From IMG/VR virus record IMGVR_UViG_3300005265_000001, positions 1 through 64,000 of that record: a DNA stretch of 64,000 nucleotides; one strand, given 5' to 3'. The notes below the pieces were generated by a model, which worked only from the letters and a program-made list of their open reading frames with translations, had not been told where the DNA came from and did no database searches. Below are positions 19,240-32,160 of this stretch, one piece after another. Source of the DNA: a virus. Every line of letters starts with the position of its first letter. Position 1 is the stretch's first letter. A program made the position numbers and the translations under genes.

Positions 19240-19244
19240 TTATT

Positions 19245-19433: not shown

Positions 19434-19520
19434 ATAATAATTAATATCAATCAATTTATAAACGTTATCAAGAAGGCGATAAAAAAGGTCAATTCATTTA
19501 ATGATAAGGAGTTTGGAGAA

Positions 19521-19757
19521 ATGAAAATTTCTGATGTTACAATGAAACTTGACCCATTTGATGAAGTGATATGGAATCACGAAAAAGAATTTTTGGAACG
19601 ATTTACTGTTAATGGTTGCGGTCAAGAATTAATAGAAACATGTTGGGGACCTAATCATTTACAATTTGTTTTTTTAGTTGATTCTGGTGCAACTCCAGTT
19701 GATTCCGTTTCAATTAATGTTTTACAAAATTGGTTTGATGAATTGATTATAAAATAA
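19521..19757 (+). CDS. Small hypothetical protein
   Basis: 78 residues from ATG 19521. The frame stays open for ~28 codons upstream with protein-like content (NQFINVIKKAIKKVNSF), but only ATA/ATT codons could start it. Ends FDELIIK; its last 24 nt and the tRNA start are duplicated at 18897-18924. Contains a cysteine pair around CGQELIETC. No family recognised. Confidence 0.5.
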   Translation: MKISDVTMKLDPFDEVIWNHEKEFLERFTVNGCGQELIETCWGPNHLQFVFLVDSGATPVDSVSINVLQNWFDELIIK

Positions 19758-19764
19758 AATTGGG
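19737..19764 (+). repeat. 28-bp direct repeat, copy 2
   Basis: Identical to 18897-18924; spans the stop codon of the 19521 gene and the first bases of tRNA-Leu(CAA). Confidence 0.8.
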
Positions 19765-19837
19765 GAGTAGCGCAATTGGCAGAGGCGACGGTCTCAAACA
19801 CCGTATGTTGGGGGTTCGAGTCCCCCCTTCCCAACCA
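19761..19837 (+). tRNA. tRNA-Leu (CAA) with short variable region
   Basis: Acceptor TGGGGAG/CTTCCCA, anticodon stem ACGGT/ACCGT, loop CTCAAAC (anticodon CAA), 5-nt variable region ATGTT, T arm GGGGG-TTCGAGT-CCCCC, A73, CCA encoded. Lacks the long variable arm of bacterial Leu tRNAs. Confidence 0.87.
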
Positions 19838-19860
19838 AAACAATAGAAGGGGAATATATA

Positions 19861-20133
19861 ATGACATTACAAGACACTATTAATTATGTGAAAAATTTAA
19901 AAAATGTTACAAGTAGAGTGGAAATTTTTGAAATTGATGGAAAAACCTATGAAATTACACTTTTTGAATTTGATATGCCTATGTATCACGATGATTGGCA
20001 TATTGCAGAAGATTTAGAATTAATTCATATATGGGATTATTGGGATTCTGATGATATGAGCATGTTTAATAAAATGGCTTTTTGTCATAAGGATGAATTG
20101 GAAAAATGGAATGAAATTGAAGAAATTTTGTAA
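19861..20133 (+). CDS. Hypothetical protein
   Basis: 90 residues, acidic, rich in Asp, Glu and Trp (YHDDWHIAEDLELIH; WDYWDSDDMS). AAGGGGA precedes ATG 19861. No family recognised. Confidence 0.6.
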   Translation: MTLQDTINYVKNLKNVTSRVEIFEIDGKTYEITLFEFDMPMYHDDWHIAEDLELIHIWDYWDSDDMSMFNKMAFCHKDELEKWNEIEEIL

Positions 20134-20167
20134 GGATATTTGTTAAGAATAAAAAGGAAATAGGAAA

Positions 20168-20314
20168 ATGATTGAAATTATAAAAAGTGTTTTAAAAAAG
20201 AACAATTTCAAAGTTGAAAAAATGGAGATAAATGAAAATATGATTGAATTGTATGTAAGAAAAGTAACACCGATAGAGCATATTAATGTAATGATTAAAA
20301 TGAATGGAAGTTAG
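20168..20314 (+). CDS. Small hypothetical protein
   Basis: 48 residues: a basic helix (MIEIIKSVLKKNNFKVEKME) and a beta-rich end (MIELYVRKVT). AAGGAAATAGGA lies upstream. No family recognised. Confidence 0.45.
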   Translation: MIEIIKSVLKKNNFKVEKMEINENMIELYVRKVTPIEHINVMIKMNGS

Positions 20315-20318
20315 TGGA

Positions 20319-20600
20319 ATGAAAAAATCGTCTAATAGAGTATTATTAGAGTTTGAACAAAAACGGATTAATCATATTGAAAAATTTATAGGTAAAGGAA
20401 ATGCAAAACCATATTTTTTGACAGAAAAAGATGAGGATTTTATTTTAAACAAATACCCATATCCAGAAATTTTAACAACGTTTCGTCGTCTTCTTTATCC
20501 TGATTATTGGACTTGGTTTAATGGTTTCAGTATTTGGTGTCCTATTTATGGAAATATTGACCATGTTTTGTTGCCATTGGGTAAAATGGTGGTTATATAA
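20319..20600 (+). CDS. Hypothetical protein, probably continued in another frame
   Basis: 93 residues from ATG 20319 (MKKSSNRVLLEFEQKR...). The reading stops at 20600, but from about 20580 the +1 frame reads on with protein-like sequence (YKQLKRYDILWLDYD) to a stop at 20715. A frameshift, natural, programmed or an error, would join them into a ~130-residue protein. Confidence 0.5.
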   Translation: MKKSSNRVLLEFEQKRINHIEKFIGKGNAKPYFLTEKDEDFILNKYPYPEILTTFRRLLYPDYWTWFNGFSIWCPIYGNIDHVLLPLGKMVVI

Positions 20601-20715
20601 ACAACTTAAACGTTATGATATATTATGGCTTGATTATGATAAACCCGATTGGCCTAATCCTATATTTTGGAAACTTGATTCCAGTATAACGGATAAGTAT
20701 GTTGTAGGGGAGTAG
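20521..20715 (+). CDS. +1-frame continuation of the 20319 gene
   Basis: This frame has normal codon choice for its last ~42 codons (KRYDILWLDYDKPDWP...DSSITDKYVV) but its only ATG lies deep inside the preceding gene with no ribosome site. It is best read as the C-terminus of the 20319 gene after a +1 shift. Its stop codon lies 10 nt inside tRNA-Leu(TAG). Confidence 0.35.
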   Translation: MVSVFGVLFMEILTMFCCHWVKWWLYKQLKRYDILWLDYDKPDWPNPIFWKLDSSITDKYVVGE

Positions 20716-20782
20716 CGCAATTGGCAGAGGCGACGGCCTTAGAAGCCGTATGTTGTGGGTTCGATCCCCACCTTCCCTACCA
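20706..20782 (+). tRNA. tRNA-Leu (TAG) with short variable region
   Basis: Acceptor AGGGGAG/CTTCCCT, anticodon stem ACGGC/GCCGT, loop CTTAGAA (anticodon TAG), variable ATGTT, T arm GTGGG-TTCGATC-CCCAC, A73, CCA encoded. The body is nearly the same as tRNA-Leu(CAA), pointing to duplication. Confidence 0.88.
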
Positions 20783-20906
20783 ATTAATTACAAACAGGAG
20801 AAAACATGGCAAATATTCAGAACATTAAATGAGGTGGCGGAAATTTCGGAAGTTGAAAAATGGATTAAAGAGGTGGAAAAGAAATAGATAAATAACATTA
20901 AAATTT

Positions 20907-20915
20907 TATATTATT
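20907..20915 (+). promoter_or_regulatory. TATATTATT motif, putative phage promoter
   Basis: Ends 24 nt before ATG 20940; no -35 hexamer upstream. Confidence 0.4.
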
Positions 20916-20939
20916 ATGTAAAACACCATTGGAAGGGCG

Positions 20940-21608
20940 ATGACAATAAATAGAACAGACAATAAACCAGAATTTAAAAATAGTATATTTAAACAGATTG
21001 AACTTGCATTGAAGGAATTATTAGCAATTCCCCACCCCACTGATACAAGTAGGAATTTAACTGTTTTGAATAGTATTCCTAATTTGGCATTTAAAAAAAT
21101 GGAAACAATGTCAATTCCAATGGGCGGAGATCAAACACGTCAAATTGATTTTCCTTTTGTTTCTTTTTACCGACAACGTGGGATAGAGATTGAAAAACCG
21201 GCGTTTTCGGGTCTTGAATTTAGAAAATCGAATTATTCAATGGATTTTAACACAACTGAATTAAGAAAATTATTAACACCGATTATTTTGGTGTATAATA
21301 TTGATACATGGTGTGAGGATTTATATCAACAAAATTATATTTTATCGTATTATTTCCCACTTTTACAAAAAGGTAGTTTGGGGCCTTTTGACATTATGGA
21401 AAATGTGGACCCAATTTATTGCCCATTTCACATGATAAATTCAGATGTTGAAGACAATTCAGATATTGAATTTAATGAAATGGTTGAAATATATAGAAAT
21501 ACATTTAGTTTGACTGTTCATGCCATGTTACCACCGATTTATACAAGATGGGTTAAAACGGTTAGAAGTGTTCAAGATGAAATTATAATTGAAGAGAGGT
21601 TGCAATAA
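20940..21608 (+). CDS. Hypothetical protein, possibly structural
   Basis: 222 residues, mixed alpha/beta, with a conserved-looking end (FSLTVHAMLPPIYTRWVK). It is preceded by the TATATTATT motif also found before the sheath gene, which hints at late expression. Neck or tail-completion proteins have this size, but I recognise no family. Confidence 0.6.
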   Translation: MTINRTDNKPEFKNSIFKQIELALKELLAIPHPTDTSRNLTVLNSIPNLAFKKMETMSIPMGGDQTRQIDFPFVSFYRQRGIEIEKPAFSGLEFRKSNYSMDFNTTELRKLLTPIILVYNIDTWCEDLYQQNYILSYYFPLLQKGSLGPFDIMENVDPIYCPFHMINSDVEDNSDIEFNEMVEIYRNTFSLTVHAMLPPIYTRWVKTVRSVQDEIIIEERLQ

Positions 21609-21612
21609 AAAT

Positions 21613-22275
21613 ATGTCACTACATGAATTTTTAAAAGATGCTGATAAAATTGGATTTGGTATAGTTGGGATGATGGCAGTGTATTTAGGGTTCAAATATT
21701 TTAAATCCAAAATTGGTGAATTGGGTAAAAAAACTAATCATTACAACCCTTTGAATCATGCTTTTTTTATCAGAATTAAATATATTTCAAAATACCAATT
21801 AAGAGCAATGGAGATTATATATATTCAAAAAGATGGGGTGGATAAATGTAAAACAGAATTGTTTCGAGATATGTTAAAGGTGAAATTTACAATTTGGGAA
21901 CGTGAAGTTAAAAATATGGTAAATAATATTGTAAATAAACAATTTAAAATTACCAATTTGGAAAAAGTTGTAATTGACAATTTGATTTATGTTGTTACAA
22001 GTTATGAGGATGAATGGCGGAAAATGGGTGTTCCAGAAATAGTAATTGAAAAATTTAATAAATGGCACAAACCGCATGTTGATTTGATTTTTGAAACAAT
22101 TAAATCAATTATTGCCGGAAAAATATATAATGATAAAATCCTTTTATTAAATGCTATTTTGGATTTGTATTTGGCTATGATTGTAATGACAATGGCTGAT
22201 GCAGAAGAAACATTAAAACGTTTGAATGGTGAACTGAATGGGATAAAATATAATGATTGTATAGTGGGGGATTAA
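21613..22275 (+). CDS. Hypothetical protein with an N-terminal membrane segment
   Basis: 220 residues from ATG 21613. IGFGIVGMMAVYLGFKYF near residue 12 is a likely membrane segment; the rest is helical and basic then acidic. GAGAGG lies 5' of the start. No family recognised. Confidence 0.6.
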   Translation: MSLHEFLKDADKIGFGIVGMMAVYLGFKYFKSKIGELGKKTNHYNPLNHAFFIRIKYISKYQLRAMEIIYIQKDGVDKCKTELFRDMLKVKFTIWEREVKNMVNNIVNKQFKITNLEKVVIDNLIYVVTSYEDEWRKMGVPEIVIEKFNKWHKPHVDLIFETIKSIIAGKIYNDKILLLNAILDLYLAMIVMTMADAEETLKRLNGELNGIKYNDCIVGD

Positions 22276-22293
22276 AAATAGGGGGCATTAAGA

Positions 22294-22473
22294 ATGAAAT
22301 TTGATAAAGTTTACAAAATGTTATTGGAGAAATCGAAAAAACGCAAAATAACAGTTGAAAAATTCTATTTTTATTTTGCTAATTTGATGGATGCCCAAAG
22401 AAGTGGCGATGAAAATACTATTGATAAAATTGGGGAACTGTTATTAAATGAAAACACACAAGTATCTTCGTAA
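22294..22473 (+). CDS. Small helical protein preceding a tagged gene
   Basis: 59 residues (MKFDKVYKMLLEKSKKRK... ANLMDAQRSGDENTIDKIGELL). The layout, a basic helix, a loop, then a helix with xxGDxxxIxxI, is shared with the small proteins at 31976, 33110 and 37353, each of which also directly precedes a tagged JAB-type gene. GGGGG precedes ATG 22294. Overlaps the next gene by 26 nt, implying coupled translation. Confidence 0.6.
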   Translation: MKFDKVYKMLLEKSKKRKITVEKFYFYFANLMDAQRSGDENTIDKIGELLLNENTQVSS

Positions 22474-23059
22474 ATTTAAAAGAGGGGATCATTGGGTTTA
22501 TATATATAAAAACTCAAAAAAAGATGGCGCACAAGATAAAAGGGGTTTATCAGAAAAAGAAATGGAAATTACAAATAAAATAAGAAATCATAAACGATTT
22601 AGTTATGTTATATTGGATAAAAATGGTAAGGCTATTGGGGGAAAATATGATAGAAATATTGCAAAAAATGATATAGCGGCCTTCAAAAAAATCAAAATAA
22701 AAAAGGGGGCGCATACAGTAATACTTAATAGGGCTGAAAATTTAAAGATTAGGCGAATTGAAAATGGAGATAAAAAAACTATAAATATTGATCCAACTCC
22801 TATTGATTGGGAAATTGAGTATTTTTTTAAAAAAGGAATAAGAAAAATAATAGTTTCAACCGAAAAATATGATAGAATTTTTAATATAAAAACTGATAAT
22901 ATTTCTGATATTATTGGTGATTATTATTCAATTTTGCTTGATAGAGAAAAAGAATTGAAGAAAAATAAATTAACATTTTTTGAGAATGTTTGGAAAATAA
23001 TCAATAAGGATTATCCTGAACTTATTACTTTTCAAAAAAGGGGTGTTAAAAATGGCTAA
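22448..23059 (+). CDS. HKYL-tagged protein with degenerate JAB-like domain
   Basis: 203 residues. The tag is THKYLRKFKRGDHWVYIYK at 3-21. The body follows the tagged JAB proteins (NKIRNHKRFSYVILDKNGK resembles NKIRNQKYETFVLFDNKGN at 37517), but the metal-site residues are gone: FS replaces the catalytic YE/FE glutamate and AHTVILNR stands where HNHP should be. It is probably a non-catalytic relative. It lies outside the main tagged cluster, next to the DUF6582-like gene. Confidence 0.55.
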   Translation: MKTHKYLRKFKRGDHWVYIYKNSKKDGAQDKRGLSEKEMEITNKIRNHKRFSYVILDKNGKAIGGKYDRNIAKNDIAAFKKIKIKKGAHTVILNRAENLKIRRIENGDKKTINIDPTPIDWEIEYFFKKGIRKIIVSTEKYDRIFNIKTDNISDIIGDYYSILLDREKELKKNKLTFFENVWKIINKDYPELITFQKRGVKNG

Positions 23060-23372
23060 ATGGACACGAAAATTTATTAATGATTTACCAGATTCATCAT
23101 TTGCTTTGATTTTACCTGGGGGCAAAAAAGATGAAGAAGGAAAAACCAAACCAAGAGATTTGCGGATGTTCCCATACAAAGATGTGAATGGAAATCTTGA
23201 TAAAGATCACATAAGAGCGGCACTTGTTTATTTGGATAGGGCAAAAATTTCCGAAAAAGATAAGAAAAAGGTCTTGAAAGTATTAAAAGCGGCTGAGAAA
23301 AAATTGGAAATGGGTGAATATAAAAAATCAACCATTTTAAGGGTCAATGATATTTATGTTCTGAATAAATAA
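23052..23372 (+). CDS. DUF6582-like phage protein
   Basis: 106 residues from ATG 23052. FINDLPDSSFALILPGGKKD, then GKTKPRDLRMFPYKD and HIRAALVYL, matches a module (LPDSxFAxxxPGGKKD...RxLRxxPxxD...HxRxAL) that I know from phage head proteases and minor head proteins, where it is usually part of a longer chain. Here it stands alone. Function unknown. Confidence 0.65.
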   Translation: MAKWTRKFINDLPDSSFALILPGGKKDEEGKTKPRDLRMFPYKDVNGNLDKDHIRAALVYLDRAKISEKDKKKVLKVLKAAEKKLEMGEYKKSTILRVNDIYVLNK

Positions 23373-23402
23373 ACTGTTTTTGGAAATAGTAAGGAAATAA
23401 AG

Positions 23403-23651
23403 ATGTTAAGGTTTCGTAATAAAACCGACAATGATTTTGAAAAAAAACTAAAGAATACGTGTTTACATTTAATGGATAATTTTAATGGTCTAAAGGATGA
23501 TGAAAAACTTTTATTATTATATGGATTAACAAGTGCAATAAAAGAAAACAACCATGTTAAACTTGATGCTTTAAATCAAATTAAACATTTGATTGATACA
23601 AATCAATGTAAAAATTGTGGGGACACCTTTGATGGAAACAATAGTCGATGA
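23403..23651 (+). CDS. Hypothetical protein with a C-terminal CxxC
   Basis: 82 residues, helical, ending QCKNCGDTFDGNNSR, half a zinc ribbon. Ribosome site AAGGAAA. Overlaps the next gene. No family recognised. Confidence 0.5.
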   Translation: MLRFRNKTDNDFEKKLKNTCLHLMDNFNGLKDDEKLLLLYGLTSAIKENNHVKLDALNQIKHLIDTNQCKNCGDTFDGNNSR

Positions 23652-23838
23652 TAAAAAAATGAAAAAAATCATTAAGAAATTGAGTGAATTACAAATTAAA
23701 ATGATAGAAAACAAAACACCTTATGCTTCTCAGTATGCACAATCTATTATTGAGGCGTTTAAAAATAACAATTATGATGAATTGGTATTAATTGCCAATA
23801 AAATGACAGAAATTTTGAAGCCCAAAAAGAAAAAGTAG
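23632..23838 (+). CDS. Small helical protein
   Basis: 68 residues from ATG 23632 (METIVDDKKMKKIIKKL...). Basic helix, short loop, helix with NNNYDELVLIANKM; similar in layout to the small proteins that precede tagged JAB genes, but the next gene is a phosphoesterase. Overlaps the previous gene by 20 nt. Confidence 0.5.
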   Translation: METIVDDKKMKKIIKKLSELQIKMIENKTPYASQYAQSIIEAFKNNNYDELVLIANKMTEILKPKKKK

Positions 23839-23873
23839 TTGAATTTTATAAATAAATATGATATATAATATTT

Positions 23874-24401
23874 ATGAATTTTACAAAGTATTGGACAATT
23901 GCGGACACACATTTTGGGCATGATAAAATAGTAGAATATCACCCGGTTCGATCCCAAAATTTTAGTGAAAAAATTTTAAAGTGTATTTCAAACACACCCT
24001 TTAGACAGGGGGATATTTTTATTCATTTGGGTGATGTTTGTTTTGGAAATGATAAAGAATGGCATGAAAAATTAATTCAATCAATTCCACCTTTTGTAAA
24101 TAAATGGCTAATATTAGGAAATCACGATAAAAAATCAATAAGTTGGTATTACAGAATGGGGTGGAATCTTGTTTGTGAAAATATAACTTTAAACATTTGG
24201 GGTAAAATTATAACATTTTCACATTATCCTCTATATGGGGTGTTTGATTTTGTGAATTATGATGTTAAAGATTTTGTGAATGTTCATGGGCACACACATG
24301 ATAATAGATATAATATAAAGTCTTATCATGTATGTATTTCAATTGAAAAAAATGGCTACTGTCCTGTAAATATGCGTAAAATAATAGAAAAACGGGGGTA
24401 A
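23874..24401 (+). CDS. Calcineurin-like metallophosphoesterase
   Basis: 175 residues with TIADTHFGHD, IHLGDVCFGND, LGNHDKKS, FSHYPL and NVHGHTHDN, the complete metal site of a small phosphoesterase. AADTHFGH-type proteins are common in phages and of unknown substrate. No clear ribosome site is seen; TGATATATAATA upstream (23859-23870) may be a promoter. Confidence 0.8.
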   Translation: MNFTKYWTIADTHFGHDKIVEYHPVRSQNFSEKILKCISNTPFRQGDIFIHLGDVCFGNDKEWHEKLIQSIPPFVNKWLILGNHDKKSISWYYRMGWNLVCENITLNIWGKIITFSHYPLYGVFDFVNYDVKDFVNVHGHTHDNRYNIKSYHVCISIEKNGYCPVNMRKIIEKRG

Positions 24402-24404
24402 ATT

Positions 24405-24695
24405 ATGAAGACAGTTGATATGCACATGGTTTTTAAAATAACAAATTTGATTTTGTGGACTTCTTTGTTTTTGGATTTTGTAACTGGTTGGTTGATTATA
24501 AATAATAGTGGGGGATCTGATAGTTTTATTGAATTGTTTAATTTTGCTTGGATTTTTTCTATTTTATTGTTTGTTGCATTTAGGGGGTTTGGGTGGATAA
24601 ATTATAATTATTGGTGGGCTATTGTTATTTATATTGTGTTTTATATAGTTGGATTGGTGTTTTGTGGGACACTTTATGCAATTTTTAGAGGGTAG
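24405..24695 (+). CDS. Small membrane protein
   Basis: 96 residues with three hydrophobic segments (LILWTSLFLDFVTGWLI, WIFSILLFVAF, WWAIVIYIVFYIVGLVFC). Holin-like in size and topology, but that is a guess. Follows the phosphoesterase by 3 nt. Confidence 0.6.
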   Translation: MKTVDMHMVFKITNLILWTSLFLDFVTGWLIINNSGGSDSFIELFNFAWIFSILLFVAFRGFGWINYNYWWAIVIYIVFYIVGLVFCGTLYAIFRG

Positions 24696-24696
24696 T

Positions 24697-24772
24697 GGGG
24701 CGTTAGCTCAGTTGGCAGAGCAACGGACTTTTAATCCGTAGGCCATAGGTTCGACCCCTATACGTCCCACCA
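24697..24772 (+). tRNA. tRNA-Lys (TTT)
   Basis: Acceptor GGGGCGT/ACGTCCC, D stem GCTC/GAGC, anticodon stem ACGGA/TCCGT, loop CTTTTAA (anticodon TTT), variable AGGCC, T arm ATAGG-TTCGACC-CCTAT, A73, CCA encoded. Confidence 0.94.
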
Positions 24773-24783
24773 TATAATATTAT

Positions 24784-24858
24784 TCCACGGTAGTTCAGGG
24801 GTAGAACAGGCGACCGATAATTGTCATGCCGAAGGTTCAAATCCTTCCCGTGGAACCA
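24784..24858 (+). tRNA. tRNA-Ile (GAT) with C33
   Basis: Acceptor TCCACGG/CCGTGGA, D stem GTTC/GAAC, anticodon stem GGCGA/TTGTC (two G-U pairs), loop CCGATAA (anticodon GAT), variable ATGCC, T arm GAAGG-TTCAAAT-CCTTC, A73, CCA encoded. Position 33 is C, not U. Confidence 0.85.
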
Positions 24859-24877
24859 AAAATTAAGGGGTTATAAA

Positions 24878-25192
24878 TTGACAAAAAGTGAAAGAGAAAT
24901 TTTTTTGAAAGCAATTGATGTTTTTGGGAGTGGAAATCAAGTTATTATGGTTATGGAAGAAATGAATGAATTGGGAAAGGAACTTTGCAAAACATTTAGG
25001 GAAAGTGGCGCACCGATAGATAACATTTGTGAAGAAATTGCGGATGTTGAAATTATGTTAGATCAACTAAAATTGATTGTTGGAGAAAAGAATGTAACAT
25101 ATTATCGTAAAAAGAAAATAAAAAGACTCAAAGAGCGGTTAGATACTTATGATAAATCAATGAAAATTGCAAAGAAAATGCAGGATATTTAA
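24878..25192 (+). CDS. MazG-like nucleotide pyrophosphohydrolase
   Basis: 104 residues from TTG 24878 with AAGGGG 7 nt upstream; the longer frame runs into tRNA-Ile. VMEEMNELGKELCK and CEEIADVEIMLDQLK give the EExxE...ExxD metal set of all-alpha NTP pyrophosphatases. These cleave (d)NTPs to monophosphates; phage members may purge unusual nucleotides or (p)ppGpp-linked signals. The substrate is unknown. Confidence 0.72.
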   Translation: MTKSEREIFLKAIDVFGSGNQVIMVMEEMNELGKELCKTFRESGAPIDNICEEIADVEIMLDQLKLIVGEKNVTYYRKKKIKRLKERLDTYDKSMKIAKKMQDI

Positions 25193-25194
25193 AA

Positions 25195-25569
25195 ATGAAT
25201 CTTGATTATTTGTTAATTATTATTTGGTTACATTTTTTTGCGGATTTTCTTTTTCAATATGATAGAATGGCAATTGAAAAAGGTCATAATTGGAAGTATC
25301 TATTTTTTCATGGTGAGATTTATACAGCAACTTTTTTACTTTTTAATCCCATTTATGCGGTTGTAAATGGAATTTTACATATTGTGGTCGATTTTGCAAC
25401 TTCAAAACTTATAACTTATTTTTCCACAAATAATCAAAGACATTGGTTTTTTGTGACAATTGGAATGGATCAAGCCATTCATTTCACTTGTTTAATTATG
25501 TCTTTTTTCATTTTGAATATAATTTATCCAAACATTCAATGGCTATTTTTTCTAAAATATTTTGGGTAG
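25195..25569 (+). CDS. DUF3307-like membrane protein
   Basis: 124 residues. IIWLHFFADFLFQYDRMAIEK, then FFHGEIYTA, ILHIVVDFATSK and MDQAIHFTC, carry the same His/Asp pattern as the protein at 6388. Three to four membrane segments. Role unknown. Confidence 0.65.
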   Translation: MNLDYLLIIIWLHFFADFLFQYDRMAIEKGHNWKYLFFHGEIYTATFLLFNPIYAVVNGILHIVVDFATSKLITYFSTNNQRHWFFVTIGMDQAIHFTCLIMSFFILNIIYPNIQWLFFLKYFG

Positions 25570-25572
25570 AGG

Positions 25573-25601
25573 TTGATTTTTTGAAAAAAGTGTGGTATAA
25601 C
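25573..25601 (+). promoter_or_regulatory. Sigma-70-type promoter of the structured leader
   Basis: TTGATT at 25573-25578, 17-nt spacer, TGG-TATAAC with -10 at 25596-25601. Transcription would begin near 25608, just before the first RNA unit. Confidence 0.8.
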
Positions 25602-25615
25602 ATATACATGATTAA

Positions 25616-25681
25616 TTGACAAAAGGAAAAGTTACTTAAACCAACAGGCCAACACCCTGTTTTTGATCACTTTTCCGTCAA
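25616..25681 (+). ncRNA. Structured leader RNA, unit 1
   Basis: P1 TTGAC/GTCAA, an AAAA bulge on the 5' strand only, P2 GGAAAAGT/ACTTTTCC, then TACTTAAA and an apical hairpin AACAGG/CCTGTT. The same architecture recurs in units 2 and 3 with different but still complementary bases. The 343-nt gap 25570-25912 contains only the promoter and these units. Confidence 0.7.
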
Positions 25682-25710
25682 TACTAAAAAATTGAAGAGG
25701 ATAAGAATTA

Positions 25711-25773
25711 ATGGCAAAAGAATGAGTTACTTAAAAAATGAATCTGTTAAATTCAAATTTACTCATTCGCCAT
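25711..25773 (+). ncRNA. Structured leader RNA, unit 2
   Basis: P1 ATGGC/GCCAT, bulge AAAA, P2 GAATGAGT/ACTCATTC, then TACTTAAA and an apical TGAAT/ATTCA hairpin. Both stems differ from unit 1 yet remain paired. A five-codon frame with ribosome site (ATG GCA AAA GAA TGA at 25711) begins on P1. Confidence 0.7.
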
Positions 25774-25819
25774 ATAAAAATGGAGGTGTTTAAAATGCAC
25801 TAAAACATAAAAGGGTTTC

Positions 25820-25882
25820 TTGACAGCAGGGGAAGTTACTTTTTTAAGATTATTTGGAAATCGCCTTTTACTTCCCCGTCAA
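25820..25882 (+). ncRNA. Structured leader RNA, unit 3
   Basis: P1 TTGAC/GTCAA, bulge AGCA, P2 GGGGAAGT/ACTTCCCC, then TACTT and a U-rich apical part. It ends 30 nt before the TerD-like gene start. Confidence 0.7.
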
Positions 25883-25912
25883 TTTCAACCTTAAACTCAA
25901 TGGAGTGTCAAA

Positions 25913-27994
25913 ATGACTTATGATGATTTTGTTGTTGAATTTGGTAGAACAAATAAAATTGGGGTTTTGTTATCTAACAAAAATATTAACAAAAATCCTG
26001 AAAAGTTTTTTATGTTTCTTTTGAAACTTGGTTTTATTCCTTCCAAACAGTTTTTAGAAAAAGCACCACGTATCAAAAATTTGAATAAAATTCTTGATTT
26101 TTTCATTGCATACAAAAAACAAGATAAAAATTGGCAAAATACACTTTTTGGGGATTACGAAAATGTAGTTGGTAAGGTTCCCGATGTTGTTTTGCGAATT
26201 GAAACTCTTTTACACTATTTTACAACTTATGGTGCTGAATTTCTTGAAATGGATATTCCAACTTATTTTCCTAATGAACAAACAAAAATTGGAAAAAGGG
26301 AAATCAAGAAATTTTTAAAAGAAATTGATGTTTCAAAAAATGATATGTCAAATTTTTTGATTGTGGATATTGAGGCACCACATATTTTACGTCAAATTGT
26401 GGTTGAAAAATTGGTTTACACTAATACTCCATTAACTGAAATGGAAATGGAATATTTGAAAAAAAGATTGATTGATGCAAAAGGTATTGAATTTGATGTT
26501 AATCGTATTAGATTTAGTGAGGTTAAGACTCTTGTTTTGGATAGTGGAAATCAGAATATCAAAAATTTGGAGTATTTTGATGTTCTGAGATGGGCATGTT
26601 ACAAAATTACTGATAAACCAATTCTATTAAATTCAAAAGATTTGGATAAAATGGCAGATTTTATTAGTGATGATATAAAAAACACTTTTTGGAAGTTATT
26701 GGGTGTAGTAAATTATGATAAAATTTCAAAGGGCTATAAACAAAAAAGAAAATTATCCAATAAAATTTTTCAAATAATGGCAATTAAAGAGTTTAAAAAT
26801 AAATATGATGCGGCTAAATTTGCCAAAACGTTGAAAAATGGAAATGCGGGTATTAAAAGGGTTCAAACAGATTATGCAATTTTTTCAAGGTTAATGAAAA
26901 AAGATAGAAAAAGAGCAATTGAATTGTATCCACATATTGCCTTGGAAAAATATAATCAATTTAATTGGACATTGAAAGATACAGTGTATCTAATGGAACA
27001 TTTATCAACAAAATTACAATTGAGACTTTTTAATGTTATTCGTATGAGTGAAGAAATGTATGATTTTGGTGTTTATAAATTACCTAATGGTAAAATCTAT
27101 GTAAGAGATGATATTTTAACAAAAACACCAAAATTCAAAACTTATGCAAATAAATTTTGGGATGTAATTTTGAAGAATAAACCAACTGTTAGAGTAAATA
27201 TTTCACCTGAATTGAGGGAATACGTTGAAAATGTTGTGAATATGAAAATTCCTTTGACTGTTAGGGATGTTGGCGATGGTTTGGAATTTGAAAGAGGGTC
27301 CTATATTACCTTGAAATATGGTGAACGTTACAATGTTGGGGTTTATTGGAAAAATCAAAAAGGACATAGAATTGACTTGGATTTGGCTTTTAGATATTAT
27401 GATAAGGATTTTTCAAGTTCTAATGTAATAGGTTGGAATGGGTCTTATGGAAGTGGTGATGGATTAGATATTAAATTTTCAGGTGATATTACGGATGCAC
27501 CCAAAGGGGCGGCGGAATTTATTAGTTTTACAAATGTAAATGAACCTTTGTTTGGTATTTTTGCGGTGAACTGGTTCAATAGTGGTTACAGTAATAAAAT
27601 GAAAGTTAGATTTGATTTGTTTATTAATGAAAAAAGAAATATGAGGGGCCATGTAAATCCAGCAACTTCACTATTTTTCAATACAAGGTTTTTGGATAGA
27701 GAAAATTCCTATGTTTCTTTGGGGATTATGGATTTTGAAAGGGGTTGGTTTTTTCCTGTGAGTGGCAATATGAATTTACGTCCCGGATCAAGTTTAAAGA
27801 ATATGAGTGGAACAAGTTTTATAATTCGCACAATGATTGAAAAAGAATATAGAAAAGTTGATTGTAATGAATTTTTTCAATCAGCGGTTAAACGTAAGAA
27901 AATTGAATTGGTAAATGATACTGAAAATGTTGATTATACGATTAAAGATATTAATCAATTCAAGAATTTTGTTGTAGAGTATTTGGGGTTGTAA
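25913..27994 (+). CDS. Large protein with C-terminal TerD-like domain
   Basis: 693 residues. The first ~440 are helical and could be repeats. From about 470 a beta-rich domain has ITLKYGERYNVGVYWKN, HRIDLDLAFRYYDKDF and FSGDITDAPKGAAEFISF; this fits TerD-type domains (DIDLSAxxYD...HSGDITxAPxGAxEFIDxD) as I know them from the MXAN_6230/SCO0854-like family, where such a domain follows a long helical part. TerD proteins bind calcium and belong to stress or phage-resistance networks. GGAGTG precedes ATG 25913, right after the RNA units. N-terminal role unknown; RNA binding is a guess from the leader. Confidence 0.6.
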   Translation: MTYDDFVVEFGRTNKIGVLLSNKNINKNPEKFFMFLLKLGFIPSKQFLEKAPRIKNLNKILDFFIAYKKQDKNWQNTLFGDYENVVGKVPDVVLRIETLLHYFTTYGAEFLEMDIPTYFPNEQTKIGKREIKKFLKEIDVSKNDMSNFLIVDIEAPHILRQIVVEKLVYTNTPLTEMEMEYLKKRLIDAKGIEFDVNRIRFSEVKTLVLDSGNQNIKNLEYFDVLRWACYKITDKPILLNSKDLDKMADFISDDIKNTFWKLLGVVNYDKISKGYKQKRKLSNKIFQIMAIKEFKNKYDAAKFAKTLKNGNAGIKRVQTDYAIFSRLMKKDRKRAIELYPHIALEKYNQFNWTLKDTVYLMEHLSTKLQLRLFNVIRMSEEMYDFGVYKLPNGKIYVRDDILTKTPKFKTYANKFWDVILKNKPTVRVNISPELREYVENVVNMKIPLTVRDVGDGLEFERGSYITLKYGERYNVGVYWKNQKGHRIDLDLAFRYYDKDFSSSNVIGWNGSYGSGDGLDIKFSGDITDAPKGAAEFISFTNVNEPLFGIFAVNWFNSGYSNKMKVRFDLFINEKRNMRGHVNPATSLFFNTRFLDRENSYVSLGIMDFERGWFFPVSGNMNLRPGSSLKNMSGTSFIIRTMIEKEYRKVDCNEFFQSAVKRKKIELVNDTENVDYTIKDINQFKNFVVEYLGL

Positions 27995-28005
27995 TTTGTG
28001 AATTT

Positions 28006-28033
28006 GGGGGGGCGTCGTTCCCCCCCTTTCCTT
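28006..28033 (+). terminator. Rho-independent terminator
   Basis: Seven G, 7-nt loop CGTCGTT, seven C, then TTTCCTTTA, directly after the TerD-like gene. Confidence 0.85.
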
Positions 28034-28042
28034 TATATTATT
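28034..28042 (+). promoter_or_regulatory. TATATTATT motif, putative phage promoter
   Basis: Immediately after the G/C hairpin terminator and ending 27 nt before ATG 28070; no -35 is possible inside the hairpin, which favours a promoter made of this element alone. Confidence 0.45.
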
Positions 28043-28069
28043 TTCAAAAAATAATGGGGCATTGATAAT

Positions 28070-28564
28070 ATGAAAGGAACTCACAAGTATTTATCCAAAA
28101 AACGTGTTGGGCATAGATGGATTTACAAATACAAAAAAGTCGAAGGCAAAAACAGAGATAATGATGATGATTTGTCTTCAAATTCTGTGAAAACTGAAAT
28201 AAACACTAAAATAAAAAATATAGTTAATTCCAAACTAATTGATAAAACTAAAAGAAAAAGGATAAAAGCACTTATTGATAATGTCAAACATGATATTAAA
28301 ATTGCGAGTGAAGCCATTCATAAATATAATGAACTTAAAGGTTATGGATATAATGATGGGGAAATTCAAAACAAATTAAAAGATTATTTTAAGAATTTTG
28401 AAACAGACCATTTTGCCGATTTGTATATGACACATTCAAATATAAATGAGGCCATAAAAAAATATGATAGTATGGTTGGGGAAATCAAAACCTATATAGG
28501 AAAATTAGATGATTTTATTGGGAATCCTACAAATAATCCTAATAGGATTTTGATATTCTTTTGA
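28070..28564 (+). CDS. HKYL-tagged helical protein
   Basis: 164 residues. Tag THKYLSKKRVGHRWIYKYK at 4-22, then an almost wholly helical basic body (KTEINTKIKNIVNSKLIDK; RIKALIDNVKHDIKIASE). No enzyme motif is seen. First gene of the main tagged cluster. Confidence 0.6.
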   Translation: MKGTHKYLSKKRVGHRWIYKYKKVEGKNRDNDDDLSSNSVKTEINTKIKNIVNSKLIDKTKRKRIKALIDNVKHDIKIASEAIHKYNELKGYGYNDGEIQNKLKDYFKNFETDHFADLYMTHSNINEAIKKYDSMVGEIKTYIGKLDDFIGNPTNNPNRILIFF

Positions 28565-28577
28565 GGGGAGTAGAAAA

Positions 28578-29015
28578 ATGGCTAAAAGTCACAAGTATTT
28601 ATCAAAAAAGAAGGTTGGAAATAAATGGGTTTACAAGTATAAGGAAACCACAAAAAAAGATAAGCGGACACCTTTTGAAAAAACGGGCACACCGTCACCA
28701 TTTTCAACATTCAAAAGAGATTTTTATAATGAATATGGTAAAACTAACATTGGAAAACATTTATATGATGACGATTTTTGGAAAGGACCAAAAGAATTAA
28801 TGGATTTATTAGATAAAGTTGCTCAAAAACATGGTTGGGTTTGGAACATTGAAGGCACAAAATATGAGCAAGATGAAAATATGAATCCAGTTAGAAAAAT
28901 TTGGAAAATAAAATTAACAAACGGAAAGACAGATCGTTATGGGTTTTTGACAGCGCACGGGGCGGGAACTGTGAGTGAGCCTCTAAAAAAATATGATATT
29001 ACACTAACTTTTTAA
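28578..29015 (+). CDS. HKYL-tagged protein of unknown function
   Basis: 145 residues. Tag SHKYLSKKKVGNKWVYKYK at 4-22. The C-terminal half has WVWNIEGTKYEQDE and WKIKLTNGKTDRYGFLTAHG, a beta-type domain I do not recognise. GGGGAG precedes ATG 28578. Confidence 0.6.
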   Translation: MAKSHKYLSKKKVGNKWVYKYKETTKKDKRTPFEKTGTPSPFSTFKRDFYNEYGKTNIGKHLYDDDFWKGPKELMDLLDKVAQKHGWVWNIEGTKYEQDENMNPVRKIWKIKLTNGKTDRYGFLTAHGAGTVSEPLKKYDITLTF

Positions 29016-29023
29016 AAAATAGG

Positions 29024-29052
29024 TTGATTTTTTGTTTGTTTTGTGGTATTAT
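29024..29052 (+). promoter_or_regulatory. Sigma-70-type promoter for tRNA-Pro
   Basis: TTGATT at 29024-29029, 17-nt spacer, TGG-TATTAT with -10 at 29047-29052. Confidence 0.75.
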
Positions 29053-29106
29053 AAGAAAAAATTGAAAGGGGGTAATAAATATGAGGTAAGAATAAATAAC
29101 AAATTT

Positions 29107-29182
29107 CGGGGTGTGGCGCAGTTGGTAGCGCACTTGGCCTGGGACCAAGATGTCGGAGGTTCGAGCCCTTCCACCCCGACCA
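29107..29182 (+). tRNA. tRNA-Pro (TGG) with C33
   Basis: Acceptor CGGGGTG/CACCCCG, D stem GCGC/GCGC, anticodon stem CTTGG/CCAAG, loop CCTGGGA (anticodon TGG), variable ATGTC, T arm GGAGG-TTCGAGC-CCTTC, A73, CCA encoded. Positions 32-33 are CC, so U33 is missing. Confidence 0.92.
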
Positions 29183-29240
29183 GCATGTTATTTCACATCA
29201 TGCAAATCTTCTTTTCATTCGTTTTGACTTCCTTTGGAAA

Positions 29241-29266
29241 AAAGTGGGAAAAATCCCACTTTTTTT
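29241..29266 (+). terminator. Rho-independent terminator after tRNA-Pro
   Basis: AAAGTGGGA, loop AAAA, TCCCACTTT, then a T run: a textbook hairpin that closes the tRNA-Pro transcript. Confidence 0.88.
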
Positions 29267-29278
29267 CTTTTAAATATG

Positions 29279-29307
29279 TTGACTTTTTAAATAAGGGGGT
29301 ATATAAT
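29279..29307 (+). promoter_or_regulatory. Sigma-70-type promoter for hicA
   Basis: TTGACT at 29279-29284, 17-nt spacer, TATAAT at 29302-29307. It isolates the hicA-like gene from the tRNA unit. Confidence 0.85.
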
Positions 29308-29340
29308 GGGGCCGAAAGAAAAAAGAAAAAGGGGGAAAAA

Positions 29341-29529
29341 ATGAAAAGAAAGAAAATGATAAAACTCCTGAAAAATTACGGCTTCCAAGAAAAAAGACAA
29401 GGAAGGGAACATACAATCCTTACAAACGGGGAAAGGTCAGTTTCAATTCCCCGTCATAAGGAAATCAAACGTAAAACCGCCATTAAGATTATTAAAGAGG
29501 CGGGATTAAGGGTTGCGGAGGTTATGTAA
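29341..29529 (+). CDS. hicA: HicA-like toxin (mRNA interferase fold)
   Basis: 62 residues from ATG 29341 behind AAGGGGG. KMIKLLKNYGFQEKRQGREH, with the catalytic-type histidine in REHTILTNGE, then VSIPRHKEIKRKTAIKIIKEAGL, fits the HicA/YcfA double-stranded-RNA-binding-like fold closely, including length. HicA cleaves mRNA and is held by HicB, but no HicB-like gene follows. It has its own promoter. Confidence 0.82.
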   Translation: MKRKKMIKLLKNYGFQEKRQGREHTILTNGERSVSIPRHKEIKRKTAIKIIKEAGLRVAEVM

Positions 29530-29530
29530 A

Positions 29531-29713
29531 ATGAAAAAGGTGGAATTACAAAATATAGTGGAAATTCTCAAAAAAAGAATTGAGGATTCCAGTTTGTCAA
29601 ATGAGCAAAAAGAAGGACTTACTAATTATTTGGTAAGTCTTGAAGATAAGAATAAATACAAATGGGAAAGGAAATTAAATCATTTCGATAGATTGTTGTG
29701 GGAAATTCTCTAA
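29531..29713 (+). CDS. Small helical protein downstream of hicA
   Basis: 60 residues (MKKVELQNIVEILKKRIEDS... NHFDRLLWEIL). It starts 1 nt after hicA and so could be its partner, but it has neither the HicB RNase H-like part nor a helix-turn-helix that I can see. Its size and helical layout also resemble the small proteins that precede tagged genes, and a tagged gene does follow at 29752. Confidence 0.55.
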   Translation: MKKVELQNIVEILKKRIEDSSLSNEQKEGLTNYLVSLEDKNKYKWERKLNHFDRLLWEIL

Positions 29714-29719
29714 ATTTAT

Positions 29720-29728
29720 TATATTATT
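29720..29728 (+). promoter_or_regulatory. TATATTATT motif, putative phage promoter
   Basis: Ends 23 nt before GTG 29752; no -35-like sequence. Confidence 0.4.
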
Positions 29729-29751
29729 TTAAAAATTTATCGGAATGAAGC

Positions 29752-30153
29752 GTGACACACAAATATTTCAAAAGGGTCTTAGTTGGCGGCAAATGGAGAT
29801 ACTTCTACCATGATCCCAACAAAAAGAAATTTAAACTTCATCCAATTGACGTAAAAGACAAAACAAAGGGTTACTACATTATAAAAATGGCGAGAAAAAA
29901 GGATGATTTGAATAAATTTAATCAAAAATTAAAAGAGATTAAAACAAAAGGGTTTACTGAAAATATAGATGATTTGCGAATTGCGGGAAAAGATGGTTGG
30001 ACTATTGCCCATGAGCAAGCCCTTAGAGGGTGGAAACCAAAAGATAAACGAATTTTGAATATGGAAGATAAATTTGGATATAGAGTAAAAGATGTTATGA
30101 AATATGGAAATTCTGTATTTCAATCAATTAAGGGGGTCATTAAAAATGCCTAA
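29752..30153 (+). CDS. HKYL-tagged protein with ankyrin-like repeats
   Basis: 133 residues from GTG 29752. A shorter divergent tag, THKYFKRVLVGGKWRYFY, begins at residue 2. IDDLRIAGKDGWTIAHEQAL followed by RILNMEDKFGYRVKDVMKYG reads as two ankyrin-type units (DGWTxxHxxxxxG...D..GxxxxD). Such repeats bind proteins. The ankyrin call is by eye. Confidence 0.5.
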   Translation: MTHKYFKRVLVGGKWRYFYHDPNKKKFKLHPIDVKDKTKGYYIIKMARKKDDLNKFNQKLKEIKTKGFTENIDDLRIAGKDGWTIAHEQALRGWKPKDKRILNMEDKFGYRVKDVMKYGNSVFQSIKGVIKNA

Positions 30154-30481
30154 ATATTTATCCAAAAAACGGGTAGGCAACCGATGGGTTTACAAATATA
30201 AATTACCACAAAAAAAGTATAATTTACATTCATACCGATTTTCAGAAGAAAATGATGAACATGCTGATAAAATTAGAAACAAGGTTATTGATTTAATTAA
30301 TGAGGTTAAATATTACAAAGACCCAAAAAATCATAAAGATAAACATTTATTGCCTGAGAATTACTATGAAAATATGTTAAATAAACGAAAAGATGAATTG
30401 AAAACAGTTGTAAGTTCAATTGATGCCAAAAAATATCCAATTTTGGTTAGGACAATCAAAAAAGAAATGAGAGGTTTATAA
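30146..30481 (+). CDS. HKYL-type tagged helical protein
   Basis: 111 residues from ATG 30146 with AGGGGG upstream; the longer frame is inside the previous gene. The tag starts directly with PKYLSKKRVGNRWVYKYK, lacking the histidine, then a helical charged body (ADKIRNKVIDLINEVKYY). No enzyme motif seen. Confidence 0.6.
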   Translation: MPKYLSKKRVGNRWVYKYKLPQKKYNLHSYRFSEENDEHADKIRNKVIDLINEVKYYKDPKNHKDKHLLPENYYENMLNKRKDELKTVVSSIDAKKYPILVRTIKKEMRGL

Positions 30482-30482
30482 A

Positions 30483-31508
30483 ATGCCAAGACCACATAAA
30501 TATTTACGAAAATACAAAAAAGGTAATACGTGGCTTTATGTTTATAAAAAAGAAGAAACACCAAAGTCAATTCACAAAAAAATGACCAAAAAATACAAGC
30601 AAAAAGTTAAAGATATTGCAGATGCTTTTGGAAAATTAGCACATAAAGATAAACCAGAAGCAAGCAAATATGAATTATATACAAAACTTTTGGATATTCA
30701 CGGTTATTTAGAAAGAGGCAGAGGACCCTTGGAGATCGGCAATTTACACCAAACTACAATTGATGTTTTTAAACAATTCTTGAAAAATAATAAAATGAAA
30801 TTGAATCGAAAAGTGGTAGATGACTTAAAAAATATTAATAAAATTGTTGGAACAGATGTTATGACTAAACTTGTAAGTGATATGGATAAAGAAGTTCCAG
30901 CAAAGAAAGAAAAGCCTAAACCCAAAACTGAAATCGAAGTTGAAAATTCTGCCAAATTGAGTGATATGAAAACAGTATTACCAAAAAAGGAAAAAATTAT
31001 AGATACTTACATTAGAAATTTTATTGTTAAAATGAAAGATGGAAAGTTTTATTATAAAAGAAATTCAAGAATGGGGTTTAATAGCAAAAAAGAGGTCGAA
31101 GATATTCTTAAAAAGAAATATGAAATGGTTAAAGACTATCCCAACAAGTTTTTCTTGGGCTATTTGGATATGAGACAGGAAGATTTTGCTAAATTGCCTG
31201 ATAAAGAAAAGAAAAAAGCCCTTGAACAATATTTTATTCACCAATTTGATATAGATGTTAATAATACAGTTGACTACAAACTTCAAGAAAAATTGGAAAA
31301 AGAAAAAAGTGCAAAAATTTATGAAAAAATCAGAAAGGATAAAGAAGCAGGCAAATTTATTGATTTAGGTTTTATCAATGCCTATGATGTTGACAAGTTA
31401 CCCTTTAAATTGGAAAATGATGAAATTAGAAAAAAAGTGGGTTCTCATGTTTATGAAGTGACTTCAAAAAAAGGAAATTACAGATATTTGGTTGATACAA
31501 GCGGATAA
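30483..31508 (+). CDS. HKYL-tagged protein of unknown function, multi-part
   Basis: 341 residues. Tag PHKYLRKYKKGNTWLYVYKK at 4-23. A helical part to about 135, a Lys/Pro linker (PAKKEKPKPKTE), then a C-terminal domain with RNFIVKMKDGKFYYKRNSR and a late VGSHVYEVTSKKGNYRYLVD. The linker and two-part body suggest an effector domain at the end, but I do not recognise it. Confidence 0.6.
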   Translation: MPRPHKYLRKYKKGNTWLYVYKKEETPKSIHKKMTKKYKQKVKDIADAFGKLAHKDKPEASKYELYTKLLDIHGYLERGRGPLEIGNLHQTTIDVFKQFLKNNKMKLNRKVVDDLKNINKIVGTDVMTKLVSDMDKEVPAKKEKPKPKTEIEVENSAKLSDMKTVLPKKEKIIDTYIRNFIVKMKDGKFYYKRNSRMGFNSKKEVEDILKKKYEMVKDYPNKFFLGYLDMRQEDFAKLPDKEKKKALEQYFIHQFDIDVNNTVDYKLQEKLEKEKSAKIYEKIRKDKEAGKFIDLGFINAYDVDKLPFKLENDEIRKKVGSHVYEVTSKKGNYRYLVDTSG

Positions 31509-31521
31509 AGGGGGATAAATT

Positions 31522-31776
31522 ATGAATCTTAAATCAAAATTTGACATTGGTGATTTGGTATTTGATAGAATTACTGGATTTGAGGGTATTGTTACGGGGA
31601 TTTTGATGGATGTTGCCAGAAGAATCCAATATGCAGTATCACCACAGGTTAATATTGATAGACTTGACATTGCACAATCAATTTGGATTGATGAAATCAG
31701 ATTGAAAATTAAAGAAAAAAATTCTATTGATTTTTATGGTGAAAATAATAGACCAAAACTTAAACCTATAAAATGA
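31522..31776 (+). CDS. Conserved small phage protein (beta-barrel-like)
   Basis: 84 residues. KFDIGDLVFDRITGFEGIVTG, then RIQYAVSPQVN and IWIDEIRLKI, matches a small phage protein family with a GDxVxDxxTGFxGIVTG opening and a WxDxxxL end, likely SH3-like. Role unknown. Confidence 0.65.
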   Translation: MNLKSKFDIGDLVFDRITGFEGIVTGILMDVARRIQYAVSPQVNIDRLDIAQSIWIDEIRLKIKEKNSIDFYGENNRPKLKPIK

Positions 31777-31785
31777 GGGGGTAAA

Positions 31786-31989
31786 ATGTTTAATAAAATT
31801 CTAAATCGAAAAACATATTGGGTTTTCCACCCAGACAGTCCGGGAGAAAAAATACTTGTAACCCGAAGTTGGTTGGGAAGACTGTTTAAACCGATTGCAT
31901 TTGCAACTTTAACAGAAACAATGAAATTTGGAGTAAATAAAATGAACAAAAGGGCGGTATTTGGGGAGTATCAAAATGAAGGAAATTGA
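31786..31989 (+). CDS. Small hypothetical protein
   Basis: 67 residues (YWVFHPDSPGEKILVTRSWL). GAGGGGG precedes ATG 31786. Overlaps the next start by 14 nt. No family recognised. Confidence 0.5.
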   Translation: MFNKILNRKTYWVFHPDSPGEKILVTRSWLGRLFKPIAFATLTETMKFGVNKMNKRAVFGEYQNEGN

Positions 31990-32158: not shown

Positions 32159-32160
32159 AT

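What the first reader, a model, noticed from the sequence alone, without database searches (positions are those of the whole stretch)
25608..25912. Three tandem structured-RNA units with compensatory changes upstream of a TerD-like gene
Seen: units at 25616-25681, 25711-25773 and 25820-25882 each fold as a 5-bp P1, a 4-nt bulge on the 5' strand only, an 8-bp P2 and a conserved AGTTACTT at the apical side. P1 is TTGAC/GTCAA, ATGGC/GCCAT, TTGAC/GTCAA; P2 is GGAAAAGT/ACTTTTCC, GAATGAGT/ACTCATTC, GGGGAAGT/ACTTCCCC, so base identity changes but pairing holds. A consensus promoter starts just before unit 1. I know no named RNA with this layout. Inference: a cis-regulatory array or a small RNA bound by the downstream 693-aa protein, comparable in logic to type III antitoxin repeats or Ro-bound Y RNAs.
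Basis: partly seen in the sequence, partly recalled or inferred. Interest (0 to 1): 0.87.

Follow-up and report, generated by a model that had tools for sequence, protein, structure and literature searches.

The report
tRNA-mimicking RNAs with TerD-type protein partner
A phage carries three small hairpin RNAs that belong to a previously uncatalogued family found in other phages and in soil and marine bacteria, always with one protein and often next to RNA-repair genes, and many family members imitate pieces of transfer RNA, which suggests a new kind of tRNA-protecting or tRNA-repair particle.

Summary
The three units are real and structured. They are divergent members of an RNA family absent from Rfam: a P1/P2 stem with a 3-4-nt loop opposite a single C, then a conserved TTCCTA strand (TTACTT here). 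The pairing is supported by strong covariation. The family accompanies one helical-plus-TerD-like protein: 105 of 109 loci have units upstream of it, and in 297 Bacteroidota genomes units and protein occur in exactly the same six, side by side. In Chryseobacterium and relatives the locus sits beside rtcB (63 of 80 loci within 1.5 kb upstream) and often rlaP, an RNA-repair context; most phages here carry RNA ligases (this one a T4 Rnl1 type). Many units carry tRNA mimics: tRNA-like folds whose anticodon loop is replaced by the stem, circularly permuted tRNAs with closed acceptor stems, T-arms, or anticodon arms (Lys, Asn, Tyr, Gln loops). Window unit 2 has an Asn-type anticodon arm. The architecture resembles Ro60/Y RNA operons functionally, but the protein is not TROVE and the RNA matches no Y-RNA family. 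Best reading: a Y-RNA-like, tRNA-mimicking RNP of RNA-repair systems shared by bacteria and phages. Binding and the decoy/scaffold role are inferred. tRNA splicing, type III antitoxin and simple leader regulation fit worse.

The parts
25616..25681 (+). RNA unit 1: P1 TTGAC/GTCAA, bulge AAAA, P2 GGAAAAGT/ACTTTTCC, TACTT, apical hairpin
   Evidence: (z -3.8)
25644..25660 (+). apical hairpin of unit 1: ACAGG-[CCAACAC]-CCTGT (7-nt loop)
   Evidence: sequence; fold
25711..25773 (+). RNA unit 2: P1 ATGGC/GCCAT, bulge AAAA, P2 GAATGAGT/ACTCATTC, TACTT, apical hairpin
   Evidence: z -3.7; best window hit of model R2, which was trained without the window
25739..25755 (+). apical hairpin of unit 2: TGAAT-[CTGTTAA]-ATTCA, an anticodon-arm mimic with a tRNA-Asn(GUU)-type loop
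25820..25882 (+). RNA unit 3: P1 TTGAC/GTCAA, bulge AGCA, P2 GGGGAAGT/ACTTCCCC, TACTT, apical hairpin
   Evidence: (z -2.2)
25848..25862 (+). possible apical hairpin of unit 3: GATT-[ATTTGGA]-AATC (7-nt loop; not the MFE pairing)
   Evidence: sequence
25573..25601 (+). weak promoter candidate TTGATT-17-TATAAC, with expected start about 8 nt before unit 1
   Evidence: by eye; not listed by the scan, which was not significant
25913..27994 (+). 693-aa partner protein: helical N-terminal part plus TerD-like beta domain
27245..27529 (+). TerD-like segment (residues 445-539) of the partner protein
   Evidence: NF041916 match E 8.4e-8; relative's model matches SCP2 (9a6r_B), E 2e-4

Best explanation
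The units are small noncoding RNAs that form a ribonucleoprotein with the protein encoded beside them. The shared P1/P2 stem (asymmetric internal loop with a single C, and the TTCCTA or TTACTT strand) is the binding handle for the helical-TerD protein. The other end of each RNA is a variable effector module that often imitates tRNA or a part of it: an anticodon arm, a T-arm, or a whole tRNA-like fold. The particle works like Ro60 with Y RNA (YrlA) in RtcB operons, during attack on tRNA. It presents tRNA-like surfaces that decoy anticodon nucleases, or that recruit tRNA-handling enzymes and the repair ligase (RtcB in bacteria; Rnl1/Rnl2, sometimes with RlaP, in phages). Shown: structure, covariation, exclusive co-occurrence with the protein, rtcB/rlaP linkage in bacteria, tRNA mimicry. 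Inferred: binding, processing into separate RNAs, and the decoy or scaffold role.
For: Pairing: in 60 diverse units 98.2% of cells are paired, with 204 double-sided changes against 63.5 in shuffles, 0/500 (these units had been picked for good pairing). Test on arms picked by motif only: 223 of 331 have a perfect 6-bp partner against 26.7 when re-paired at random; C follows in 220 of 223. Co-occurrence: 105 of 109 loci; 6 of 297 genomes for the RNA and the same 6 for the protein, adjacent (G027 was the chosen centre); whole-genome hits fall essentially only at this locus; a DNA-pattern search blind to the protein gave 6 paired loci, all with the protein next to them. Context: RtcB immediately upstream in 63 of 80 bacterial loci, RlaP in 39; among 27 viral records 17 carry an RNA ligase (Rnl1, Rnl2 or RtcB) and 8 RlaP, and the window phage has Rnl1. 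Mimicry: 48 tRNA-likes with acceptor, D and T stems (Rfam tRNA hits); canonical anticodon arms in 33 of 224 apical loops against 1.0 in shuffles, T-arms in 20 against 0.1; S-CRM01 has a permuted tRNA-like whose acceptor stem is closed by TTCG.
Against: No binding, expression or processing data. The window's own relation to the family is distant: the protein is about 20% identical, TTACTT replaces TTCCTA, P2 is 8 bp instead of 6 with a 3x1 loop, and R2 finds only unit 2, at E 0.09. Only unit 2 has a canonical anticodon-type loop; the unit 3 hairpin is not the MFE pairing. Most phage members lack RtcB and RlaP. The RNA-ligase counts have no background set of unrelated phages. Many standalone apical loops mimic nothing obvious. 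18 of the 33 anticodon arms are homologous copies in Chryseobacterium (16 distinct hairpins in all).
Confidence: 0.68

Rival explanations
1. The units are cis-acting leader elements: binding sites in the 5'UTR by which the protein controls its own mRNA.
For: In most loci the units lie in tandem just upstream of the start codon, and the last unit ends close to it.
Against: Units also lie downstream of the gene (Phass-1, S-CRM01, L012) or about 2.4 kb away among tRNA genes (S-CBWM1). Tandem copies with tRNA-like, T-arm and anticodon-arm modules are not needed for a leader switch. Autoregulation can coexist with the main model.
Confidence: 0.15
2. The element is a tRNA-processing signal: tRNAs interrupted in the anticodon loop or circularly permuted are spliced at U33/N34 with help of the protein and RtcB.
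For: The interrupted and permuted tRNA-likes exist, several joined loops look plausible (for example L013, L030, L108, L053), and RtcB is a tRNA-splicing ligase.
Against: In L070, L112, L115, L120, L126 and L136 there is no room for an anticodon arm outside the element. Many lack U33. The permuted acceptor of S-CRM01 is capped by a TTCG tetraloop. Most units contain no tRNA exons, and the window has none.
Confidence: 0.08
3. Type III toxin-antitoxin: the repeats are RNA antitoxins and the protein is an endoribonuclease toxin.
For: Layout of promoter, RNA repeats and protein gene.
Against: No toxin-family match in Pfam or PADLOC; repeats are about 60 nt and far from identical; a TerD-like beta domain is not a ToxN fold; linkage is to repair genes.
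Confidence: 0.03
4. The three window units are a chance or lineage-specific hairpin array, unrelated to the wider family.
For: R2 detects only unit 2, at E 0.09; TTACTT instead of TTCCTA.
Against: Same layout, similar handle (A-rich 5' loop, 3' C before P1', AGT/ACT end of P2, TTNCT strand), same position beside the same protein family; folding z down to -3.8.
Confidence: 0.05

Closest known systems
Ro60 (Rsr)/Y RNA, especially the Salmonella rsr-yrlBA-rtcBA operon with the tRNA-mimic YrlA (PMC7790460)
   Same: RNA-binding-type scaffold protein, tRNA-mimicking small RNAs and RtcB in one locus; conserved stem as handle plus a variable effector module; tRNA-like module attached at the anticodon position (YrlA detail from memory).
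   Different: Protein is not TROVE (hhalign probability about 1%) and carries a TerD-like domain; RNA matches no Rfam Y-RNA model; several RNAs per locus, with T-arm-only and anticodon-arm-only types; TROVE genes occur separately, even in 3 of the same 6 genomes.
Band-7/SPFH scaffold with a tRNA-like RNA in RNA-repair operons (Burroughs and Aravind 2016, from memory; paper not held)
   Same: Repair operon with a scaffold protein and a tRNA-like RNA.
   Different: Different protein fold; the RNA could not be compared here.
TerD family (SCP2/YceC; NCBIfam NF041916 MXAN_6230/SCO0854 RING proteins)
   Same: C-terminal beta domain; some phage proteins with the same overall fold are annotated as tellurium-resistance-like or cytoplasmic protein.
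   Different: Long helical N-terminal part, no RING, constant RNA neighbour.
Type III TA antitoxin RNAs (ToxI)
   Same: Tandem structured RNAs before a protein gene.
   Different: No toxin, no near-identical pseudoknot repeats, different context.

Membership tests
Ro60/Y RNA RNP | protein contains a TROVE domain | tested here: not met
   No TROVE among 44 members in Pfam; hhalign against 12 Bacteroidota TROVE proteins gives probability about 1%; no Ro60 among the listed PDB fold matches
Ro60/Y RNA RNP | RNA matches a Y-RNA covariance model | tested here: not met
   Rfam 15 scans
Ro60/Y RNA RNP | tRNA-mimicking module (bacterial Yrl RNAs) | tested here: met
   48 tRNA-likes, T-arms and anticodon arms, permuted closed tRNA-like in S-CRM01; in the window only an anticodon-arm mimic
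Ro60/Y RNA RNP | gene linkage to RtcB (frequent) | tested here: met
   63 of 80 bacterial loci; not in the window phage
Ro60/Y RNA RNP | RNA physically bound by the protein | not testable with these tools
   only co-occurrence is available
TerD domain family | TerD-type beta-sandwich fold | tested here: met
   AF2 model of the Chryseobacterium relative, pLDDT 89, best PDB match SCP2, E 2e-4, probability 1.00; sequence match NF041916 8.4e-8 for the window protein, below its curated cut-off
Type III toxin-antitoxin | ToxN-type endoribonuclease gene after the repeats | tested here: not met
   no such match in Pfam or PADLOC
Intron-containing or permuted tRNA genes (splicing) | removing the element restores a 5-bp/7-nt anticodon arm with U33 | tested here: not met
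   only 21 of 48 have at least a 4-bp stem and U33; several have no anticodon arm at all
Known Rfam RNA family | score above gathering threshold | tested here: not met
   only tRNA and tmRNA models hit

The most novel reading that the evidence does not exclude
A new class of RNP, independent of Ro60/Y RNA: a helical-TerD protein loaded with a small library of tRNA-part decoys (anticodon arms of Lys, Asn, Tyr and Gln type, T-arms, whole permuted tRNAs) that protects tRNAs from anticodon nucleases or directs their repair. Bacteria use it with RtcB/RlaP, and phages have acquired it to survive tRNA-cutting defences.
Probability: 0.4. Interest if true: 0.93.

Novelty: new variant of a known kind. 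Interest (0 to 1): 0.85.

Why it matters
It adds an RNA family absent from Rfam and a protein family absent from Pfam to RNA-repair systems, present in both bacteria and viruses, and shows convergence on the Y-RNA design (protein-binding stem plus tRNA mimic) with an unrelated protein. It gives a first testable link between TerD-like domains and RNA. The different mimic modules (Lys-UUU, Asn-GUU, Tyr-GUA loops; T-arms) make concrete predictions about which tRNA-targeting enzymes the particle meets, a question still open for bacterial Y RNAs.

Tried and rejected
Single-sequence relative searches with the window protein gave nothing in viral or genome contigs; only a two-sequence profile with S-CBWM1 gp22 opened the family. 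BLASTN of the array found nothing in phages. A TTACTT-type pattern scan gave one chance locus without the protein. AF2 of the window protein itself was poor (pLDDT 58) and its fold search meaningless. tRNA splicing looked attractive at first (U33/N34 junctions) and was dropped. Homology to TROVE was tested and rejected. Promoter and terminator scans gave nothing significant near the units. L063, a pattern hit, shows no proper pairing and no protein. Burroughs and Aravind 2016 and two Y-RNA papers were not held, so prior mention of this protein or RNA cannot be excluded; full-text searches of the open library found none.

Full report
OBSERVATION. Each folds as P1 (5 bp), a 4-nt 5' bulge and P2 (8 bp), with z-scores of -3.8, -3.7 and -2.2 against dinucleotide shuffles. 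A model built from the three finds no convincing further copy in the 105.9-kb viral record. The first two are in the predicted folds; the third is not the minimum-energy pairing. The loop of unit 2 is a canonical anticodon loop of the tRNA-Asn(GUU) type. The promoter is weak: visible by eye, not listed by the scan.

FINDING THE FAMILY. The 693-aa protein has no Pfam or PHROG match; NCBIfam NF041916 (TerD-containing family) hits its C-terminal part at 8.4e-8, below that family's cut-off. tblastn linked it to gp22 of Synechococcus phage S-CBWM1. A profile of the two proteins found 18 viral relatives, a wider profile 35 viral loci and at least 80 bacterial ones, mostly Chryseobacterium and other Bacteroidota. 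Reading upstream of these genes showed the same RNA architecture nearly everywhere.

THE RNA FAMILY. Consensus: P1 of 4-7 bp (often GGC/GCC), a 3-nt 5' loop (AAA, ATA or ACA) opposite a single C, P2 of 6 bp ending in AGT/ACT, then TCCTA(T) and a variable apical part. Arms picked by the TTCCTW motif alone have a perfect 6-bp partner in 223 of 331 unique cases, against 26.7 when partners are exchanged; the following base is C in 220 of 223; 105 of 109 loci have at least one unit. In a 60-unit alignment, selected for pairing, 98.2% of cells pair and 204 carry double-sided changes against 63.5 in shuffles. A covariance model trained without the window (R2) ranks window unit 2 first in 64 kb, but only at E 0.09. 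The window array is therefore a divergent member: 8-bp P2, 4-nt bulge, TTACTT.

CO-OCCURRENCE. In 25 whole genomes or records, R2 hits lie essentially only at this locus, in genomes of up to 8 Mb. In 297 Bacteroidota genomes, R2 finds six genomes and the protein profile the same six, with adjacent coordinates (one of the six, G027, was the chosen centre). A DNA-pattern search that knows nothing of the protein returned seven loci; the six that pair all have the protein next to the units. In cultured phages, S-CRM01 has units on both sides of its homologue g174, and Phass-1 has six units 1.2 kb downstream, next to tmRNA-like sequence.

CONTEXT. In Chryseobacterium and relatives the gene directly upstream usually encodes RtcB (63 of 80 loci on the same strand within 1.5 kb; 69 loci in all) and RlaP lies nearby in 39 loci, with a WYL regulator next to rtcB in the two loci examined. 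Locus L108 has an RF-1-domain protein instead. Among 27 viral records, 14 carry an Rnl2-type ligase, 7 Rnl1-type, 2 RtcB and 8 RlaP; 17 have at least one ligase. There is no background set of unrelated phages, so this is suggestive only. The window phage has an Rnl1-type ligase at record position 100122-101186.

tRNA MIMICRY. Forty-eight tRNA-likes have 6-7-bp acceptor, D and T stems, with the anticodon loop replaced by the element in permuted order: P2', C, P1', loop, P1, AAA, P2, TTCCTA. Rfam's tRNA model recognises several as tRNAs with insertions. In L012, L040 and L053, and in cultured phage S-CRM01, the tRNA-like is circularly permuted inside the element; in S-CRM01 the acceptor stem is closed by TTCG. 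In further units the apical part is only a T-arm (20 of 224 apical loops hold a T-arm, against 0.1 in shuffles) or only an anticodon arm with a YUNNNRA loop (33 of 224 against 1.0; 16 distinct hairpins). The Lys-type loop CTTTTAA recurs with several different stems, and CTGTTAA (Asn), CTGTAAA (Tyr) and CTTTGAA (Gln) also occur.

PROTEIN. An AF2 model of the Chryseobacterium relative is confident (pLDDT 89): a helical N-terminal part followed by beta domains; the best PDB match is TerD-family SCP2, E 2e-4. Full-length fold matches exist in other phages, including Campylobacter IBB35 and Lactobacillus LpeD. It is not TROVE, and TROVE genes sit at separate loci, three of them in the same six genomes. 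The window protein's own model was poor.

MECHANISM. Best reading: a Y-RNA-like RNP. The common stem is the protein handle and the variable end is a tRNA mimic. In Salmonella, Ro60, YrlA and RtcB share an operon activated by damaged tRNAs, and a competitive-inhibitor role of the YrlA tRNA-like domain towards an anticodon nuclease has been suggested (PMC7790460). Phages are reported to use RNA ligases, RlaP and sometimes TROVE with a tRNA-like partner against RNA cleavage (PMC7824862). By analogy this particle acts as decoy, sensor or scaffold in tRNA protection or repair. Shown: structure, covariation, association, mimicry, repair context in bacteria. Inferred: binding, processing, decoy or scaffold action.

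RIVALS. A pure leader switch is weakened by units found downstream of or far from the gene and by the mimic modules. Splicing is weakened because several tRNA-likes have no room for an anticodon arm. Type III TA lacks a toxin and near-identical repeats.

NOVELTY. The RNA matches no Rfam family and the protein no Pfam family; the general kind (tRNA-mimic RNA plus scaffold protein in RtcB systems) is known. I therefore call it a new variant of a known kind. Burroughs and Aravind 2016 could not be read, so an earlier mention cannot be ruled out.

Noticed in passing
window 22448-39291: About ten ORFs of unrelated length (e.g. 22448, 28070, 28578, 30483, 32161, 33288, 35468, 36397, 37517, 38146) share an N-terminal motif like HKYLRKYKGKNGKWVYIYKE in front of different bodies, as if a common targeting or packaging tag.
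   Followed up: no
window 10685-29182: Nine tRNA genes are scattered singly or in pairs between protein genes; tRNA-Lys and tRNA-Ile lie about 750 nt upstream of the units.
   Followed up: no
window 33993-34721: 242-aa ORF with a C-terminal KH domain (Pfam E 1.4e-6): a phage-encoded putative RNA-binding protein.
   Followed up: no
L161 623-1687 (record 100122-101186, outside the window): The same phage encodes a T4 Rnl1-type RNA ligase.
   Followed up: partly
L101, L132, L139, L142, L146, about 170-270 nt upstream of the gene: Dyad CGCA-N7-to-9-CGCA (TGCGCA-like half sites), in several with a TAnnTTTG (Bacteroidetes-type) promoter just after it, before the first unit: possible operator of the neighbouring WYL regulator.
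   Followed up: partly
L164 6488-6952: Gut phage Phass-1 has six units in a row directly upstream of a tmRNA-like sequence; one carries a perfect tRNA-Lys anticodon arm (CTGA-CTTTTAA-TCAG).
   Followed up: partly
L069 about 3730-3790: The T-loop of this Chryseobacterium tRNA-like is interrupted by an extra stretch, suggesting decay or insertion into the mimic.
   Followed up: no
L123 1003-2694: Winogradskyella locus has an array of about twenty ordinary tRNA genes just upstream of two tRNA-mimic RNAs and the protein gene.
   Followed up: no
L108 1537-2229: RF-1-domain (possibly PrfH-like) gene near the protein gene in Tenacibaculum, where no RtcB was found nearby; PrfH is a known partner of RtcB repair systems (PMC6514570).
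   Followed up: no
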